Assembly: GCA_022360445.1 (NCBI GenBank)
Contig: JAKSCV010000099.1
Span: 1-34,605 of the forward strand
DNA: 34,605 bases
Source: Gammaproteobacteria bacterium
Lineage (GTDB): Bacteria > Pseudomonadota > Gammaproteobacteria > UBA5861
Direction of reading: 5' to 3'
Below the pieces are notes generated by a model. It saw nothing but the letters and a program-made list of their open reading frames with translations. It did no database searches and was not told the origin of the DNA. Of the stretch, positions 4,314-11,772 are shown piece after piece; position 1 is the first letter of the stretch; the number at the start of each line of letters is the position of its first letter. The position numbers and the translations under genes are program-made.

Positions 4314-4549
4314 ATAGTCCTCCAAGGTTAAATGCCAATTTTTTCTAAAAAATTGTTCAGATTATATCTCTTTAATCAATCGTCAATAAGCTCTGTTTAA
4401 TTTTTAGAGTGCTGGGGAGTTATGGGTAACCGTGTCGGAAATGCCTCAAACGTTGGCTTAAGATATTACCCAATCTGTCGCTATTTTCTATAAATACAAC
4501 CCGTTAAATAGTCATTCTGTCAGTCCCTTTGGCCATTCAGGTAATTAAC

Positions 4550-5053
4550 ATGAGAAAACAAACTGGCTTTACTCTCATTGAGCTTATTGTCGTCATGATC
4601 ATTCTAGGTGTATTGGCAACAACTGCTTTGCCTAAGTTTATGGATGTCACCAGCCAGTCTCACGAAGCAGCAGTCGCTGGAACGGGTGGTGCCTTTGGCA
4701 GCGCCGTTTCACTGGCGCACGCTCAGTGGATCGCTAACGGACATGTGACAAGTATCGATGATCTTGCCGGATTTGGCGACGGCACGATTGATACCAGCAC
4801 CAGTGGCTGGCCAACAGATACAGCCGGCAATAATGACCTCAGCACAGCGACACATTGCATTCATATTTGGAATGGTTTGATGCAGAACCCACCCACCGCC
4901 GTGACTGGCAGCAGCACGAAGGCCAGTTACATTGCAACGGTTAATGCCAGCGCAAATACCTGCACATACACATACAATAAGGCGACGAATATGTCGATCA
5001 CCTACGACGCAGACACAGGCAATGTCTCCGTCGACAGCGATAGCACGAGCTAA
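4550..5053 (+). CDS. mshA: MSHA-type major pilin
   Basis: 167-residue class III signal prepilin, first of a five-gene pilin operon. The short basic leader MRKQTG ends at the prepilin peptidase site, and mature pilin begins FTLIELIVVMIILGVLATTALPKF with Phe1 and Glu5. A hydrophobic N-terminal helix is followed by a Thr/Ser/Asn-rich globular part. Two cysteines (THCIHIW and ANTCTYTY) probably close the C-terminal D-region loop. I chose ATG 4550 rather than an upstream TTG because it gives the canonical six-residue leader. Similarity to Vibrio/Shewanella MshA (PKFMDV after the helix) and the downstream mshC-D-O-P order support the name. The product is expected as the main subunit of a type IV pilus used for attachment. 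Confidence 0.85.
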   Translation: MRKQTGFTLIELIVVMIILGVLATTALPKFMDVTSQSHEAAVAGTGGAFGSAVSLAHAQWIANGHVTSIDDLAGFGDGTIDTSTSGWPTDTAGNNDLSTATHCIHIWNGLMQNPPTAVTGSSTKASYIATVNASANTCTYTYNKATNMSITYDADTGNVSVDSDSTS

Positions 5054-5071
5054 TAACGGGGCACCTCTGTC

Positions 5072-5593
5072 GTGGATAGCAATATGGGCAGTAGAGGCCA
5101 AAAGTTTTCTGCCCGGAAAGCCAAAGCTGGTTTTACGTTGGTTGAACTGGTTGTCGTCATGATCATTGTGGGCGTGTTAGCCACTGTCAGTGTCCCTAAA
5201 TTTTTTTCAACCGCGGCCTTTTCAGAGCGGGGATTCACGGCGGAGGTGATGACAGTCATTCGGTTTGCTCAGAACTTATCTTCCACAACAGGCTGCGACA
5301 TCCGTATGGTCACGCTCGGTAATGAGATTGTCTTACAGCACTGGAACAGCTGTATCCCGGCTGATCATGCATCTGGCCCCTACCAGGCTGTCAAGCACCC
5401 AAGCGGTGGTCAGGCCTATCGTAAAGCGGCCCCCAGCGGTCTCGCGCTCCCCACTGTTGATGTGTATTTTGATAATCTTGGGAAGCCTTATGATAGTAGT
5501 ACGTCAGGCCTGCTAACAACACCACTCGACCTCAACATTGGCAGCCGGACTATTCGCATTGAACCTCACAGCGGTTTTAGCCATGTATTATGA
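5072..5593 (+). CDS. mshC: MSHA minor pilin, MshC-like
   Basis: 173-residue prepilin with leader ending KAKAG and mature start FTLVELVVVMIIVGVLATVSVPKFF, holding Glu5 and the hydrophobic helix. The globular part has two cysteines (TTGCDIR, WNSCIP) and an end typical of MshC/GspH-like minor pilins. It follows mshA by 18 bp. The start is ambiguous: GTG 5072 or ATG 5084, both in frame and both giving a leader with Lys/Arg before Gly. MshC proteins are minor subunits that help initiate pilus assembly. The name rests on position second in the cluster as well as sequence character. Confidence 0.78.
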   Translation: MDSNMGSRGQKFSARKAKAGFTLVELVVVMIIVGVLATVSVPKFFSTAAFSERGFTAEVMTVIRFAQNLSSTTGCDIRMVTLGNEIVLQHWNSCIPADHASGPYQAVKHPSGGQAYRKAAPSGLALPTVDVYFDNLGKPYDSSTSGLLTTPLDLNIGSRTIRIEPHSGFSHVL

Positions 5594-6071
5594 CCCCGTG
5601 AATTGTCACTGCCGCAAGCAAACAGGCGTTACGCTCATCGAATTGATCATTTCGATCACAATCATCTCCGTCGCTCTGGTGGCCACTCTAGGCGCATTTT
5701 CACAGAGTGTTGCGAAAAGTGCAGACCCCGCGATTCGCGCCCAGGCGGCTTCCATTGCTATGGCTTACATGGAAGAAGTGCTCTTACAACCCTACGCAGA
5801 CCCAGCAGGGTCGGATACAGGCGGCTGTGAAGAAGGTAACAGCCGCGACATTTATGATGATGTGAATGATTACGACTGTATTAATGATACGACTGGCGCT
5901 AAAGATCGTAATAACAACCTCATTCCAGGCCTGGAAGGTTACAACGTCCAAGTCAGCGTAGCGCCTTCAACGTTGAATGGCACAGCTGCCCAGAAAATTG
6001 TAGTCACAACGACTTACGATGGCGATGCGAGTCTCAAGGTGTCGCTCACAGCTTTCCGGGTGGACTACTGA
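5583..6071 (+). CDS. mshD: MSHA minor pilin, MshD-like
   Basis: 162 residues from ATG 5583, which overlaps the mshC-like stop by 11 bp. An in-frame upstream start at 5538 would lengthen the leader with hydrophobic residues and is unlikely. The leader ends in CRKQTG and the mature part begins VTLIELIISITIISVALVATLGAFSQSV. Position 1 is Val instead of Phe, but Glu5 is present. The sequence AASIAMAYMEEVLLQPYADP after the helix is typical of MshD/GspI-like minor pilins. Two further cysteines (GGCEEGN, YDCIND) may form a disulfide. Translational coupling to both neighbours indicates one transcript. Confidence 0.8.
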   Translation: MYYDPVNCHCRKQTGVTLIELIISITIISVALVATLGAFSQSVAKSADPAIRAQAASIAMAYMEEVLLQPYADPAGSDTGGCEEGNSRDIYDDVNDYDCINDTTGAKDRNNNLIPGLEGYNVQVSVAPSTLNGTAAQKIVVTTTYDGDASLKVSLTAFRVDY

Positions 6072-6967
6072 TGCGCTCGTATTCTCAACAATCCGGTTTC
6101 ACACTCGTCGAGCTGATTATTACCCTGGTTATCTCCATGATTCTGAGTGGTATTGTCAGCCAATTCATCACTAGGCCGGTGCAAGCCTACGCCGATCAGG
6201 AAATGCGCGCCCGGCTCGTAAGTACTGCAGAGCTGACACTCAAGCAGTTTCAACACGACATTCGTGGTGCCGTGCCCAACTCCCCTCGCGTTGCCTGTGG
6301 AGGGCTGTGCATTGAATTTCTATCACTCAAAACATCCGGACGTTACCGAGCCCAAGCTCCTGGTGATCCACTGGACTTTAACCCAAGTGCCAACGACACC
6401 ACCTTTGAAGTACTGAGTATGTTGCCCAGTGACCAGGCGGTGACCACCTCAGCGGACCCCGACGCTTGCCAGAACGGAACCGCAGACTGCCTGGTTGTCT
6501 ACAACACTGGATTAGCGGGCTCCAATGCCTTTAACCTGGATAACGCGGCAACAATCAATGCTGTCACCAGCGCTTCACCTCAAGTCATCATTTTCGATAA
6601 CACACGCTTTGCCAACAGTCTAAATGCTTTTCCTGTTCCCTCTCCGCATCAGCACTTCGCCATATCAGATGGCCCTGTTACCTATTTATGCGACACAGCA
6701 GCCGGCACGCTTCGAAAATATTGGGATTACCCGATTATCTCCAATCAGACAGGTGTCGACACAGCAGCGGAGCTTACCGCTTATTCCAATACCCAGGAGG
6801 CGCTTATCAGCAAACACGTGAGCAACTGCCAATTTACCTATGCCCCCGGCTCCGCGACTCATAGCAGTTTGGTGATCGTACGGTTACAGATCAGTGATCA
6901 AAATGCCTCGGGGTCAACGGAGCGTATCCAGTTACTCAAGCAAATTCACGTATCTAACACCCCCTGA
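6071..6967 (+). CDS. mshO: MSHA minor pilin, MshO-like
   Basis: 298 residues. The start overlaps the preceding stop by one base (TGATG). The leader MRSYSQQSG is followed by mature FTLVELIITLVISMILSGIVSQFITRPVQAYADQ, with Glu5 and a Pro-containing helix end as in MshO/GspJ-type pseudopilins. A large globular domain follows, with several cysteines (ACGGLC, DACQNGTADC, YLCDTA, SNCQF). It is the largest minor pilin of the operon, as expected for MshO. The likely role is in the pilus-tip or initiation complex in the periplasm and inner membrane. Confidence 0.82.
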   Translation: MRSYSQQSGFTLVELIITLVISMILSGIVSQFITRPVQAYADQEMRARLVSTAELTLKQFQHDIRGAVPNSPRVACGGLCIEFLSLKTSGRYRAQAPGDPLDFNPSANDTTFEVLSMLPSDQAVTTSADPDACQNGTADCLVVYNTGLAGSNAFNLDNAATINAVTSASPQVIIFDNTRFANSLNAFPVPSPHQHFAISDGPVTYLCDTAAGTLRKYWDYPIISNQTGVDTAAELTAYSNTQEALISKHVSNCQFTYAPGSATHSSLVIVRLQISDQNASGSTERIQLLKQIHVSNTP

Positions 6968-6975
6968 CAGGCTTT

Positions 6976-7395
6976 ATGATGCAAACGATTTATTCCAAAC
7001 ACAGCCAGAAGGGCTTTTCGATTGTCAGCGCGATTTTCATCGTGACCGTTTTAGCCGCTCTGGCCAGTTACACCCTCTCTATTAGTGCTGTACAACACAC
7101 TTCAAACACCCAGACATTACAGAAAATGCGCGCCCGGCTCGCAGCCTACAGTGGGTTAGAGTGGGGTATTCGTTATATACAGGACAATAACACCTGCCCA
7201 CCCGGCGGCATCAGTTTTATTGTGACAGCTTTTACTGTTTCTATTTCACAATGCGATGCATCAACCCTCATTACAGAAGGAACAAGCAGCTACCGCAGTT
7301 TTATGATAGAAAGCCATGCGGCCACGGTGGGTAAGGTCTTTGGCGAACGTGACTATGTGGCTTCCACTCAGCAAGTGATCATTACAGGCCCCTAA
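6976..7395 (+). CDS. mshP: MSHA minor pilin, MshP-like
   Basis: 139 residues, eight bases after the mshO-like gene. The leader ends in HSQKG and the mature part begins FSIVSAIFIVTVLAALASYTLSISAVQ. It lacks the usual Glu5, as I recall for MshP/PilX/GspK-type tip-proximal subunits. RARLAAYSGLEWGIRYI after the helix is the AxxGxEWG signature common to such proteins. Two cysteines (NTCPPGG, QCDAST) are present. It ends four bases from the convergent purK stop with no room for a terminator. No mshQ follows, so the operon ends here. Confidence 0.8.
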   Translation: MMQTIYSKHSQKGFSIVSAIFIVTVLAALASYTLSISAVQHTSNTQTLQKMRARLAAYSGLEWGIRYIQDNNTCPPGGISFIVTAFTVSISQCDASTLITEGTSSYRSFMIESHAATVGKVFGERDYVASTQQVIITGP

Positions 7396-9098: not shown

Positions 9099-10181
9099 CT
9101 AGTTAAAAAGGATAATATTCCGCGCCACTTCGCCCCGTTCGAGCTGTTCGACACCTGTATTGATCTCTTCTAATTTGAGATGTCCGGAAATCATGTCGTC
9201 CAGTTTTAGTTTACCGGACAAGTAAAAGTCAACAAATCTTGGCATATCCACCCGTGAGCGGTTAGACCCCATCATAGTGCCTTGTATTTTCTTTTCTTTA
9301 AGAAAATCCGGGCCATGCAGTTCCACCATCGTGCCAACAGGTATCATACCGATCACCGTCGCAGTCCCTCCTACTCCTAACATTTTAAAGGCTTGCTCTG
9401 TTGTCTTTTTTAGCCCGATCGCCTCAAAAGAATAGTGTACCCCGCCCTGTGTCATTTCTCGGACTTGGCCAACAGGGTCCACTTCCGCAGCGTTAATCAC
9501 GTCGGTTGCCCCAAATTTTTTCGCCAATGATAATTTGGCTGGCATTTGGTCAATTGCAATAATCCGTCCAGCACCTGCAATCGCTGCACCATTGATGCAG
9601 GAAAGGCCAACACCACCGCAGCCAATGACAGCGACTGTTGTCCCGGGCTCAACCCCTGCTGTGTGAAAAACAGCACCGAGTCCCGTAGTCACCCCACAAC
9701 CGATCAAAGCGGCTCGGTCCAAAGGCATATCAGAGCGGATTTTCACAATCGCATGCTCATGAACCAGCATATGCTCAGCAAATGAAGATAGGCTTAAAAA
9801 TTGATGTATATCCCCCTCACCCACAATCAGCCTCGGCTCCTCTTCACTGTCCCTTTTTACTTCGGGGCTGTCACATCGGGACATATGTCCCGTTAGACAG
9901 TGCTCACAATGCCCACAAAAAACAGACAAACAGGTAATCACGTGATCTCCTGGCTTAACGTAAGTCACATCTTCTCCAACAGCCTCCACCACACCGGATG
10001 ATTCATGACCTAACACAGCGGGCAAAGGATGCGGGTAATCACCATTAATAAAATGCAAATCGCTGTGGCAGATACCAGCTGCCGCTGTTCTTACTAATAC
10101 TTCGTGTGATTTAGGTTTGGATATTTGAATATTTTCGATAGACAGTGGTTTCCCAACCTCGGTCAATACTGCAGCTTTCAT
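9099..10181 (-). CDS. Zn-dependent alcohol dehydrogenase (MDR superfamily, class III-like)
   Basis: 360 residues from ATG 10181, which has GGAGGG seven bases upstream; this start is far better than 10211. Catalytic zinc ligands are Cys38 (GICHSDLH), His59-Glu60 (GHE) and Cys162 (IGCGVTTG). The structural zinc site is C89-x2-C92-x2-C95-x7-C103. The NAD-binding loop GCGGVG is at 187-192. The family oxidises alcohols or S-hydroxymethyl thiols, and this subgroup resembles NDMA-dependent and formaldehyde dehydrogenase-like enzymes, so the substrate is unknown. It lies downstream of the acyl-CoA dehydrogenase on the same strand, but 440 bp away, with a convergently oriented small RNA candidate between. 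A CTAC-N6-GTAG palindrome lies 56 bp upstream of the start. It may provide a carboxylic acid precursor for the acyl-CoA pathway. Confidence 0.88.
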   Translation of the reverse strand: MKAAVLTEVGKPLSIENIQISKPKSHEVLVRTAAAGICHSDLHFINGDYPHPLPAVLGHESSGVVEAVGEDVTYVKPGDHVITCLSVFCGHCEHCLTGHMSRCDSPEVKRDSEEEPRLIVGEGDIHQFLSLSSFAEHMLVHEHAIVKIRSDMPLDRAALIGCGVTTGLGAVFHTAGVEPGTTVAVIGCGGVGLSCINGAAIAGAGRIIAIDQMPAKLSLAKKFGATDVINAAEVDPVGQVREMTQGGVHYSFEAIGLKKTTEQAFKMLGVGGTATVIGMIPVGTMVELHGPDFLKEKKIQGTMMGSNRSRVDMPRFVDFYLSGKLKLDDMISGHLKLEEINTGVEQLERGEVARNIILFN

Positions 10182-10236
10182 GGAACCCTCCTGATGAACT
10201 TGATTATGCAAATTTTGTCTATAGTTTTGTTGACAC

Positions 10237-10250
10237 CTACCGAACAGTAG
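10237..10250. promoter_or_regulatory. Palindrome upstream of the alcohol dehydrogenase, candidate operator
   Basis: CTAC-cgaaca-GTAG, flanked by partly symmetrical TTGAC/GTCAA, forms an approximate 25-bp dyad between the alcohol dehydrogenase start and the AT-rich stretch. The size fits a dimeric regulator site. It differs in sequence from the palindromes at 2491-2529, so the two loci need not share a regulator. Function is inferred from position only. Confidence 0.35.
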
Positions 10251-10328
10251 TCAAGCAGTTAAAAAACAGCCTTGCCTCTTGATTAACTTATGGTAAAAAA
10301 ATTTTTTATTTTTTTTTTTAATATTTAC

Positions 10329-10357
10329 TTGACTCAAATACTAACAAACACTATAGT
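10329..10357 (+). promoter_or_regulatory. Sigma-70 promoter for the small RNA candidate
   Basis: TTGACT at 10329-10334 and TATAGT at 10352-10357 are separated by exactly 17 bp, each one mismatch from consensus. Directly upstream (10291-10323) is a dense A/T tract that could act as an UP element. A start site around 10364 is predicted. No protein gene lies downstream on this strand before the terminator at 10478. Confidence 0.75.
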
Positions 10358-10363
10358 TCAAAC

Positions 10364-10507
10364 CGTGGACGCGAGAGAAGCGGTATACTCTCAAAATCCA
10401 GAGCTCTATTGCTCTACTTTTAAGTTTCGGGCTTAATGTGCGACTAGCCCACGCACACATTTCCTCCATCCCCTTGGTCCCGTAGCACTTACGGGATCTT
10501 TTTTTTG
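10364..10507 (+). ncRNA. Candidate structured small RNA, about 143 nt, no class recognised
   Basis: Transcript predicted between a near-consensus promoter and an intrinsic terminator in the 440-bp gap between two minus-strand genes. It has no credible coding frame. Visible structure in order: hairpin 1, GAGAG at 10373-10377 with CTCTC at 10388-10392; hairpin 2, AGAGC at 10400-10404 with GCTCT at 10411-10415. Next come interleaved arms GGGCT (10429-10433) / AGCCC (10446-10450) and TGTGCG (10437-10442) / CGCACA (10452-10457), which fit an H-type pseudoknot or two alternative hairpins. A single-stranded pyrimidine stretch TTTCCTCCATCCCC (10460-10473) follows, then the terminator stem. The TTTCCTCC stretch could pair with Shine-Dalgarno sequences. 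It does not resemble 6S, tmRNA, SRP, RNase P or CrcZ RNAs as I know them. Confidence 0.62.
10478..10506 (+). terminator. Rho-independent terminator of the small RNA candidate
   Basis: TCCCGTA and TACGGGA form a seven-bp stem with a five-base loop, followed by TC and a run of eight T on the + strand. On the minus strand no T run follows, so it does not serve the flanking minus-strand genes. Confidence 0.88.
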
Positions 10508-10620
10508 CGTGAAAGAAATTTATTGTCATGCGCAACGTTCAAGTACTTTGTTCGATTATTTCAGGCCCCACTGATTGAACCAGCAAGGCCCTTATCCATA
10601 ATAAGCTGATTAGAAAGCGA

Positions 10621-11772
10621 TTAATAAGCTAATACTTCACGCCCAAAAAGTTCCCGGGCAACCACCATTTTCTGAACTTGCGATGTACCATCTGCGAACT
10701 CTATACCAATCGTGTCGCGCAAGCGCTGCTCAAATGGGAAGTCTGATGTATACCCATAATGGCCATGAAGCTGCATGCATGTATAAATGGCATCAATACA
10801 AAAACGCTGGCCCATGGCTTTACAGATGGACGCCTCTTTTGTGTGAGATAAGCCTTGGTCCCTCAACCATAGTGTTCTGTAACAATATAATTTGATCAAC
10901 TCAACATGTGAATGCGCTTCAACTAAAGGAAACTGGACACCCTGAAACTTCCCAATCGGCTTACCAAAGGCTTTTCTTTCTTTAATGTAGTTACCAGTTT
11001 CTTCGATAGAGATTTCAGCCGCGCCTACGCACATCAGCGTCAGTAAAACACGCGCAATATCAAACAGCTTCATGGCTTCGGGAAAGCCTCGGCCTTGTGT
11101 CCCCAATAGGTTTTCTTTGGGTATTCTCACCCCTTGAAAAGAGGCAGAGCCTCGCTTGATGGCTTTGTGTCCCATGTCGTCATAAGGCGAACGGCTAAAG
11201 CCTTCCGAATCGGTAGGAACGAAAAATAAAGAAACACCAGTGGAGCCATCATCTTGTTTGGTTTTCGCAAAAACAAGCAGGGCATCGGCTTCCATAACCA
11301 TGCTAATCGACGCCTTTTCCCCTGTGATGACCCACTCGTCACCCTCCAGCTCGGCACGTGTGATTAACCCAGCTGCATCGGACCCGGAACCCGGCTCCGT
11401 GAGGCAAAAACCCAAGAGTTTTTCGGCCGCAAGTACTTGTGGTATCCACTCATCTTTAATGTGGTCTGGCGCAAGGTTTTCCAGCAAGAGCGAAAGGCCA
11501 CCACACAAAAGAACCGGGTAAGCTGCATTAAAGTCACCTCGAGCAACTTCATAGGTAATGACACCATGGGCCAATGCTCCGAGCTCACTGCCTCCATACT
11601 GTGAGCCGGCCAAACTGCTGAAAAAGCCCATTTGTCCCATATCTTTATACATGTCATGCGGGAACTCACCCGACTTATCCCAATGCTGATACTTCGGTAA
11701 GAGTTTTTCATTCGCATAACGCCGTACCGTATCGGCAATCGCCTGAATATCATCTGACAAATTAAAATCCAC
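10621..11772 (-). CDS. Acyl-CoA dehydrogenase, cyclohexanecarboxyl-CoA dehydrogenase-like
   Basis: 383-residue FAD flavoprotein of normal length. The substrate/FAD loop CLTEPGSGSDAAG (123-135) and ITGEKASIS (149-157) are present, as are the FAD contacts RKAFGKPIGKFQ (266-277) and HGHYGYTSDFPFEQRLRD (336-353). At the position of the usual catalytic Glu (YEGT) it reads ADGT, giving Asp361. Helix G, which carries the base in isovaleryl-CoA dehydrogenases, reads FDIARV with no acid. The overall look, starting MDFNLSDDIQAIADTVRRYANEKLLPKYQHWD, recalls AliB/BadJ-type enzymes, which fits the BadH-like SDR elsewhere in the window, but the substrate is uncertain. Start ATG 11772 has GGAGGA eight bases upstream. 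Confidence 0.87.
   Translation of the reverse strand: MDFNLSDDIQAIADTVRRYANEKLLPKYQHWDKSGEFPHDMYKDMGQMGFFSSLAGSQYGGSELGALAHGVITYEVARGDFNAAYPVLLCGGLSLLLENLAPDHIKDEWIPQVLAAEKLLGFCLTEPGSGSDAAGLITRAELEGDEWVITGEKASISMVMEADALLVFAKTKQDDGSTGVSLFFVPTDSEGFSRSPYDDMGHKAIKRGSASFQGVRIPKENLLGTQGRGFPEAMKLFDIARVLLTLMCVGAAEISIEETGNYIKERKAFGKPIGKFQGVQFPLVEAHSHVELIKLYCYRTLWLRDQGLSHTKEASICKAMGQRFCIDAIYTCMQLHGHYGYTSDFPFEQRLRDTIGIEFADGTSQVQKMVVARELFGREVLAY

What the first reader, a model, noticed from the sequence alone, without database searches (positions are those of the whole stretch)
10329..10507. A complete, apparently undescribed small RNA gene between two catabolic genes
A near-perfect sigma-70 promoter (TTGACT-17-TATAGT) preceded by an A/T tract is followed about 120 bp later by an intrinsic terminator with eight T. 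There is no coding frame between them. The body has two small hairpins and an interleaved pair of stems (GGGCT/AGCCC and TGTGCG/CGCACA), the order needed for an H-type pseudoknot or for a two-state switch. It runs antiparallel to both flanking genes, so it is not a leader of either. I cannot match it to a known RNA family.
Basis: partly seen in the sequence, partly recalled or inferred. Interest (0 to 1): 0.75.

Follow-up and report, generated by a model that had tools for sequence, protein, structure and literature searches.

The report
Small RNA with a predicted partner
The window holds a real, previously uncatalogued small regulatory RNA gene whose exposed C-rich stretch is complementary, at 19 of 20 letters, to one other place in its genome: the start of a second RNA driven by the genome's only perfect sigma-54 promoter, so the two probably switch each other off.

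Summary
In the only relative held in its order (Halothiobacillaceae MAG UBA5861) both promoter hexamers, the 3' half of the RNA and the terminator are identical. All 7 substitutions in the RNA fall at unpaired positions (P = 0.005), and the flanking intergenic DNA is less conserved. No Rfam family passes. The pseudoknot/switch idea has no support: those stems never vary, and one connecting loop is a single nucleotide. The RNA looks like a trans-acting, Hfq-type small RNA with a C/U-rich anti-Shine-Dalgarno seed (UUUCCUCCAUCCCCUUGG) just before the terminator; the genome encodes Hfq. The main new result: this seed has one near-complete complement elsewhere in the genome (19/20; no other site within 3 mismatches). 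It lies at nt 13-32 of a second predicted RNA on another contig, which follows the genome's only perfect sigma-54 promoter, ends in its own terminator (with a compensatory change), and stands beside a sigma-54 activator gene and a catabolic cluster. The layout resembles the SisA/CrfA sRNA-sponge pair of Caulobacter but is not demonstrably related to it. Expression, pairing and direction of control are inferred, not shown.

The parts
10329..10334 (+). -35 hexamer TTGACT
   Evidence: identical in the relative G001.
10352..10357 (+). -10 hexamer TATAGT, 17-nt spacer
   Evidence: identical in G001; one change in the spacer.
10294..10327 (+). A/T tract upstream of -35 (possible UP element)
   Evidence: Sequence; largely retained in G001. 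Role inferred.
10363..10506 (+). small RNA gene, about 143 nt; start predicted at 10362-10365, end in the U run
   Evidence: Promoter and terminator positions; 95% identical in G001, all 7 substitutions at unpaired positions, P = 0.005.
10373..10392 (+). hairpin 1 GAGAG/CTCTC; loop variable between species
10400..10415 (+). hairpin 2 AGAGC/GCTCT; loop variable between species
   Evidence: no variation, so untested by covariation.
10460..10479 (+). predicted base-pairing seed UUUCCUCCAUCCCCUUGGUC: C/U-rich, anti-Shine-Dalgarno; 10476-10479 lie in the terminator stem
   Evidence: 19/20 complementary to one other genomic site only (G000:C88:128707-128726); 100% conserved; UUUCC and CCCCUU mostly unpaired.
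10476..10506 (+). intrinsic terminator stem-loop and T8
   Evidence: 100% identical in G001.

Best explanation
The gene makes a trans-acting small RNA of about 143 nt. It probably binds Hfq through its terminator and U tail, and represses mRNAs by pairing its C/U-rich seed (UUUCCUCCAUCCCC) with Shine-Dalgarno regions. Its activity is set by a second RNA, encoded on contig C88 and driven by a sigma-54 promoter next to a sigma-54 activator gene and a catabolic gene cluster. The 5' part of that RNA (GACCAAGGGGAUGGUGGAAA) pairs with the whole seed and acts as a sponge: when the activator senses its signal, the sponge is made, the small RNA is titrated, and its targets are relieved. Shown from sequence: the small RNA gene; the unique 19/20 complementarity; the partner's promoter, terminator, conservation and neighbourhood; the presence of an Hfq gene. 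Inferred: expression, Hfq binding, real duplex formation, sponge rather than target, and the identity of the regulated mRNAs.
For: Small RNA gene: promoter, terminator and fold; 95% identical over 143 nt against 86/83% in the intergenic flanks, promoter hexamers and the RNA from 10420 onward identical; 7/7 substitutions at unpaired positions, P = 0.005. Seed and partner: pattern search with up to 3 mismatches finds only the gene itself and the C88 site, in each of two genomes; reversed control 0. Seed duplex -36.6 kcal/mol against -29.6 for the next best unrelated window among 6366 windows scanned; co-fold -117.0 against -95.0 for the two RNAs apart. Partner RNA: TTGGCACGGGTGTTGCT is the only perfect match to that sigma-54 motif in either genome; fold z -4.9; terminator carries a compensatory G-C to A-U change (read); RNA 96% conserved against 76% for the stretch between terminator and next gene and 82% for the start of that gene, so it looks like a unit of its own; divergent PAS-AAA+ sigma-54 activator, then SDR, acyl-CoA dehydrogenase, AtuA-like and other catabolic genes. 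Hfq encoded, E 1.3e-29. Possible direct target: acyl-CoA dehydrogenase whose start region carries GATGGG(G/T)ATGGAGA just before ATG in both species (-24.3 and -18.9 kcal/mol). Precedent: the sRNA SisA and its sponge CrfA (PMC12559287).
Against: No expression data. Both pairing sites are identical in the two genomes, so there is no compensatory change across the duplex. BLAST E of the complementarity alone is only 0.065-0.068; its weight comes from where it lies, which was judged after the fact. Part of each pairing site is in intramolecular stems. With only two genomes the age and constraint are poorly measured. Purine-rich complements are common around ribosome sites; the seed core with up to 3 mismatches gives 45 hits against 17 for the reversed control in the own genome, which a ribosome-site bias alone could explain.
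Confidence: 0.55

Rival explanations
1. The C88 RNA is not a sponge but the target: the small RNA binds the 5' leader of the sigma-54 operon transcript and alters its termination, stability or translation.
For: The site lies at nt 13-32 of a transcript whose downstream gene (SDR) starts about 165 nt after the terminator. Pairing would break the CCAAG/CUUGG closing stem of the leader.
Against: The site is far from any ribosome site. The RNA ends in a complete terminator and is much better conserved (96%) than the leader that follows (76%), as expected for an independent RNA.
Confidence: 0.22
2. The complementarity to C88 is coincidental; the RNA is an ordinary anti-Shine-Dalgarno small RNA acting on other mRNAs.
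For: BLAST E only about 0.07 for the complementarity alone. Both RNAs have low-complexity purine/pyrimidine tracts. Several looser matches lie at start regions.
Against: The one complement within 3 mismatches lies in the 5' end of an RNA behind the genome's only perfect sigma-54 motif, and matches exactly the predicted seed, in both species.
Confidence: 0.15
3. A structured cis or ligand-responsive RNA: the interleaved stems form an H-type pseudoknot or two-state switch.
For: Complementary segments in the order a-b-a'-b' are present and conserved. The RNA folds better than shuffles.
Against: No variation, so no covariation test. One connecting loop is 1 nt over a 5-bp stem. It ends in a terminator and the next gene is on the other strand, so there is nothing in cis to switch. 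No Rfam match.
Confidence: 0.04
4. Not an independent RNA gene: spurious promoter and terminator in a 440-bp spacer.
For: A looser promoter scan is no richer than shuffles. Only two related genomes are available.
Against: Promoter hexamers, seed and terminator identical while flanks diverge; 7/7 changes at unpaired sites; only + strand site of this quality in 34.6 kb.
Confidence: 0.04

Closest known systems
alphaR8 / MmgR family (Rfam RF00519 suhB), including SisA-D of Caulobacter, with the sponge RNA CrfA (PMC12559287)
   Same: UUUCCUCC core (here UUUCCUCCAU, 9 of the family's 10-mer UUUCCUCCCU) downstream of a small hairpin and upstream of a Rho-independent terminator; Hfq organism; a second RNA complementary to the core; link to carbon metabolism.
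   Different: 25.2 bits against a gathering score of 41, and an unrelated C-rich RNA scores 23.7, so the match is unspecific. Family is alphaproteobacterial; this is a gammaproteobacterium. Partner here is behind a sigma-54 promoter and pairs over 20 nt, reaching CCCCUUGG; CrfA pairs through a G/A-rich stem loop (protected residues G49-C63).
Qrr small RNAs and their sponge QrrX (Vibrio; PMC9732341)
   Same: Small RNA/sponge pair; sigma-54 promoter involved.
   Different: In Vibrio the regulators (Qrr) are sigma-54 dependent (general knowledge); here it is the presumed sponge. No Rfam match to Qrr.
Other C-rich anti-Shine-Dalgarno small RNAs: NmsR of Neisseria (PMC5362039), sX13 (RF02232), Betaproteobacteria toxic sRNA (RF02278), Esr41 (RF02676)
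   Same: C/U-rich stretch able to cover ribosome sites, before an intrinsic terminator.
   Different: Only sub-threshold Rfam resemblance for Esr41 (14.6 bits, E 3.3) and the toxic sRNA (14.4 bits, E 2.7), none listed for sX13; NmsR was not compared by sequence.
CrcZ / NrsZ-type sigma-54-dependent small RNAs of Pseudomonas (from general knowledge)
   Same: The partner RNA, like these, follows a sigma-54 promoter.
   Different: CrcZ scores 13.6 and 11.9 bits against a gathering score of 95 in the C88 locus, at places outside the predicted partner RNA.

Membership tests
alphaR8 / MmgR (Rfam RF00519 suhB) | covariance-model score at or above the curated gathering score (41 bits) | tested here: not met
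   25.2 bits, E 0.0036 for a 421-base search; an unrelated C-rich locus scores 23.7.
alphaR8 / MmgR (Rfam RF00519 suhB) | single-stranded 10-mer UUUCCUCCCU | tested here: inconclusive
   UUUCCUCCAU, 9 of 10; first half mostly unpaired, second half mostly in a weak stem in the model.
alphaR8 / MmgR (Rfam RF00519 suhB) | Rho-independent terminator after the 10-mer | tested here: met
   10476-10506.
alphaR8 / MmgR (Rfam RF00519 suhB) | alphaproteobacterial host, gene next to an N-formylglutamate amidohydrolase in most species | tested here: not met
   The relative is a gammaproteobacterium; neighbours are a zinc alcohol dehydrogenase and an acyl-CoA dehydrogenase.
trans-encoded Hfq-dependent base-pairing sRNA | own promoter and Rho-independent terminator with U run, intergenic, non-coding | tested here: met
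trans-encoded Hfq-dependent base-pairing sRNA | conserved seed with complementary partner RNA in trans | tested here: met
   by sequence only.
trans-encoded Hfq-dependent base-pairing sRNA | Hfq gene present in the organism | tested here: met
   G000:C109, 103.7 bits.
trans-encoded Hfq-dependent base-pairing sRNA | binding to Hfq and expression | not testable with these tools
   Needs RNA-seq, Northern blot, RIL-seq.
H-type pseudoknot / RNA switch | covarying pairs in both interleaved stems | tested here: inconclusive
   All four strands identical in the only relative.
RNA sponge (for the C88 partner) | partner covers the small RNA's mRNA-pairing seed | tested here: met
   19/20 across 10460-10479; the seed itself is a prediction.
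RNA sponge (for the C88 partner) | partner expression lowers activity or level of the small RNA | not testable with these tools
   Needs genetics.

The most novel reading that the evidence does not exclude
A lineage-specific two-RNA switch: an anti-Shine-Dalgarno small RNA that is titrated by an independent, sigma-54-driven sponge RNA made when a PAS-type activator senses a signal linked to a neighbouring catabolic cluster, so that induction of one pathway lifts repression of others post-transcriptionally. It would have arisen independently of SisA/CrfA.
Probability: 0.4. Interest if true: 0.6.

Novelty: new member of a known kind. Interest (0 to 1): 0.48.

Why it matters
Both the small RNA and its partner lie outside the Rfam families and have no relatives in the class genomes searched beyond one genus, so they add a new, apparently independently evolved candidate to the short list of bacterial sRNA/sponge pairs. 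If the sponge reading is right, it ties a sigma-54 activator of a catabolic cluster to translation control of other genes, in a layout like the Caulobacter SisA/CrfA carbon switch. Which RNA controls which could be settled with standard two-plasmid tests in E. coli.

Tried and rejected
Rfam: nothing at gathering score. The suhB/MmgR resemblance was considered as a family assignment and dropped, because an unrelated C-rich RNA reaches almost the same score. Class-wide search for the seed (18-mer, 1 mismatch, 369 genomes): the other hits lie in open reading frames or, in one case, in what I read as RNase P RNA. Genome-collection scan of the 20-mer: besides both sites in UBA5861 it gave hits in several Roseovarius, a Cloacimonadota and a Syntrophobacterales genome; I did not examine them and take them for chance or coding. 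Covariance-model search of 143 class genomes: three weak hits, one in an open reading frame and two C-rich RNAs sharing only CUUGG plus a G+C-rich terminator. A second match of the RNA, 83% over 28 nt inside what looks like a cytochrome c1 reading frame, E 0.44, taken as chance. Full-length duplexfold energies were uninformative: -71.9 lies within the shuffled range, so the seed was tested alone. Start-region targets from the looser pattern are suggestive only. The flanking dehydrogenases' own start regions pair weakly (-12.9, -11.8 kcal/mol; the stretch used for the alcohol dehydrogenase stopped just short of its start codon). Looking for the C88 activator's sensor part in 274 class genomes gave no close relative outside the genus. 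My first alignment of the two loci had one in the wrong orientation and was redone. One script timed out without output.

Full report
WHERE IT IS. The window is contig C103 of a 3.46-Mb draft genome. The only other genome held in its order is G001, the MAG 'Halothiobacillaceae bacterium UBA5861' (matching contig lengths; Gammaproteobacteria in NCBI taxonomy). The gap 10182-10620 lies between a zinc alcohol dehydrogenase (9099-10181, taking the ATG that follows a good ribosome site) and an acyl-CoA dehydrogenase (10621-11772), both on the - strand.

THE OBSERVATION. TTGACT-17-TATAGT at 10329-10357 and a terminator at 10476-10506 are as described. The promoter is a 10/12 match. A looser scan of the surrounding 1 kb is not richer than shuffles, but at this quality it is the only + strand site in the window. 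The 143-nt RNA folds at -40.2 kcal/mol against -30.7 for shuffles (z -2.6). The only small frame of note (23 codons, no ribosome site) meets an in-frame TAA in the relative. Between the two species the RNA is 95% identical; the intergenic DNA on either side is 86% and 83%, and the neighbouring dehydrogenase genes 94-95%. Both hexamers and everything from 10420 to the terminator end are identical. All seven substitutions (10379, 10380, 10383, 10387, 10405, 10409, 10419) fall at positions unpaired in the predicted fold (P = 0.005): the loops of hairpins 1 and 2 and a linker. So the gene is very probably real. With one relative this is the limit of the comparative evidence.

THE PSEUDOKNOT. The four segments are there but never vary, so they are untested. 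Geometry speaks against an H-type knot: the loop between AGCCC and CGCACA is one nucleotide and would have to cross the 5-bp GGGCT/AGCCC stem (my judgement from general knowledge). In the minimum-energy fold TGTGCG/CGCACA is a plain hairpin and GGGCT is used in a local stem. The next gene downstream is on the other strand, so there is nothing in cis to switch.

THE FUNCTIONAL CORE. Between hairpin 3 and the terminator lies UUUCCUCCAUCCCCUUGG, C/U-rich and able to cover Shine-Dalgarno sequences; UUUCC and CCCCUU are mostly unpaired, the middle pairs weakly with the 5' end, and the last GGUC of the complementarity is in the terminator stem. With a U8 tail this is the anatomy of an Hfq-type trans-acting small RNA. 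The genome encodes Hfq.

THE PARTNER. A search of the own genome with the RNA gave, besides itself, a 20-nt stretch at C88:128707-128726 (E about 0.07) whose + strand is complementary to the seed. With up to three mismatches it is the only such site in the genome, and the same holds in G001; reversed controls give none. The site is nt 13-32 of a predicted RNA. Upstream is TTGGCACGGGTGTTGCT, the only perfect match to this sigma-54 motif in either genome. Downstream, after a strongly folded body (z -4.9), is a terminator AGCTGGGCACAATGTGCCTGGCTATTTTTTT, in which G001 carries a compensatory G-C to A-U change plus a U-G to C-G change (read from the alignment). This RNA is 96% conserved, while the stretch from its terminator to the next gene is 76% and the start of that gene 82%. 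It therefore looks like an RNA gene of its own rather than only a leader. The divergent gene is a PAS-AAA+ sigma-54 activator; downstream are an SDR, an acyl-CoA dehydrogenase, a nitronate-monooxygenase-like protein, an AtuA-like protein and a luciferase-like oxidoreductase. The seed duplex is -36.6 kcal/mol; the best unrelated window among 6366 reaches -29.6. Co-folding gains 22 kcal/mol over the separate RNAs.

HOW IT MOST LIKELY WORKS. The small RNA represses mRNAs through their ribosome sites; the sigma-54 RNA covers its whole seed and titrates it when the activator is switched on. Why sponge rather than target: the site is far from any ribosome site, the partner ends in its own terminator, and it is more conserved than the leader behind it. 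A candidate direct target is an acyl-CoA dehydrogenase with GATGGG(G/T)ATGGAGA a few nucleotides before its ATG in both species (-24.3 kcal/mol in G001, -18.9 in G000). This is suggestive only, since the seed core resembles the complement of a ribosome site and such matches are enriched anyway (45 against 17 for the reversed control in the own genome).

COMPARISON WITH THE KNOWN. No Rfam family reaches its gathering score. The best weak match is suhB/MmgR (25.2 bits against 41), but an unrelated C-rich locus scores 23.7, and host and gene neighbourhood differ, so membership fails. It does work like that family in outline: in Caulobacter the alphaR8 RNAs SisA-D, with core UUUCCUCCCU, are inactivated by the complementary sponge CrfA on carbon starvation (PMC12559287). 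QrrX and Qrr of Vibrio are another sRNA/sponge pair (PMC9732341). The new pair has no detectable relatives outside its genus in the class genomes searched.

VERDICT. A real, lineage-specific small RNA gene (about 90% sure), most likely an anti-Shine-Dalgarno Hfq small RNA, with a specific predicted RNA partner on another contig (about 75% sure the pairing is meant, about 55% that the partner is a sponge). A new member of a known kind; the pseudoknot/switch reading is not supported. Expression, pairing and direction of control remain to be tested.

Noticed in passing
L006:1461-1641 (G000:C88:128667-128847); G001:C44 counterpart in L005: Second unannotated RNA gene: perfect sigma-54 promoter, strongly folded body with a UUGGGGGA stretch near a hairpin loop, terminator with compensatory change, next to a PAS-AAA+ sigma-54 activator.
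   Followed up: yes
L035:7810-18310 (G000:C88): Catabolic cluster with activator, SDR, acyl-CoA dehydrogenase, nitronate-monooxygenase-like, AtuA-like and luciferase-like proteins; the activator's sensor part has no close relative in 274 class genomes outside the genus.
   Followed up: partly
L044:1500-1586 (-) and L045:1430-1552 (+): C-rich small-RNA-like genes in two other gammaproteobacterial genomes: CUUGG followed by a G+C-rich terminator, weak Rfam scores to suhB, anti-hemB, sX13.
   Followed up: partly
L050:1501-1523 and L076 just before its ATG at about 1619: Acyl-CoA dehydrogenase start region complementary to the small RNA's seed in both species; candidate direct target.
   Followed up: partly
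window 4529-7395 (+): Run of genes, three of them with type IV pilin-like N-methylation motifs, next to purE/purK (- strand).
   Followed up: no
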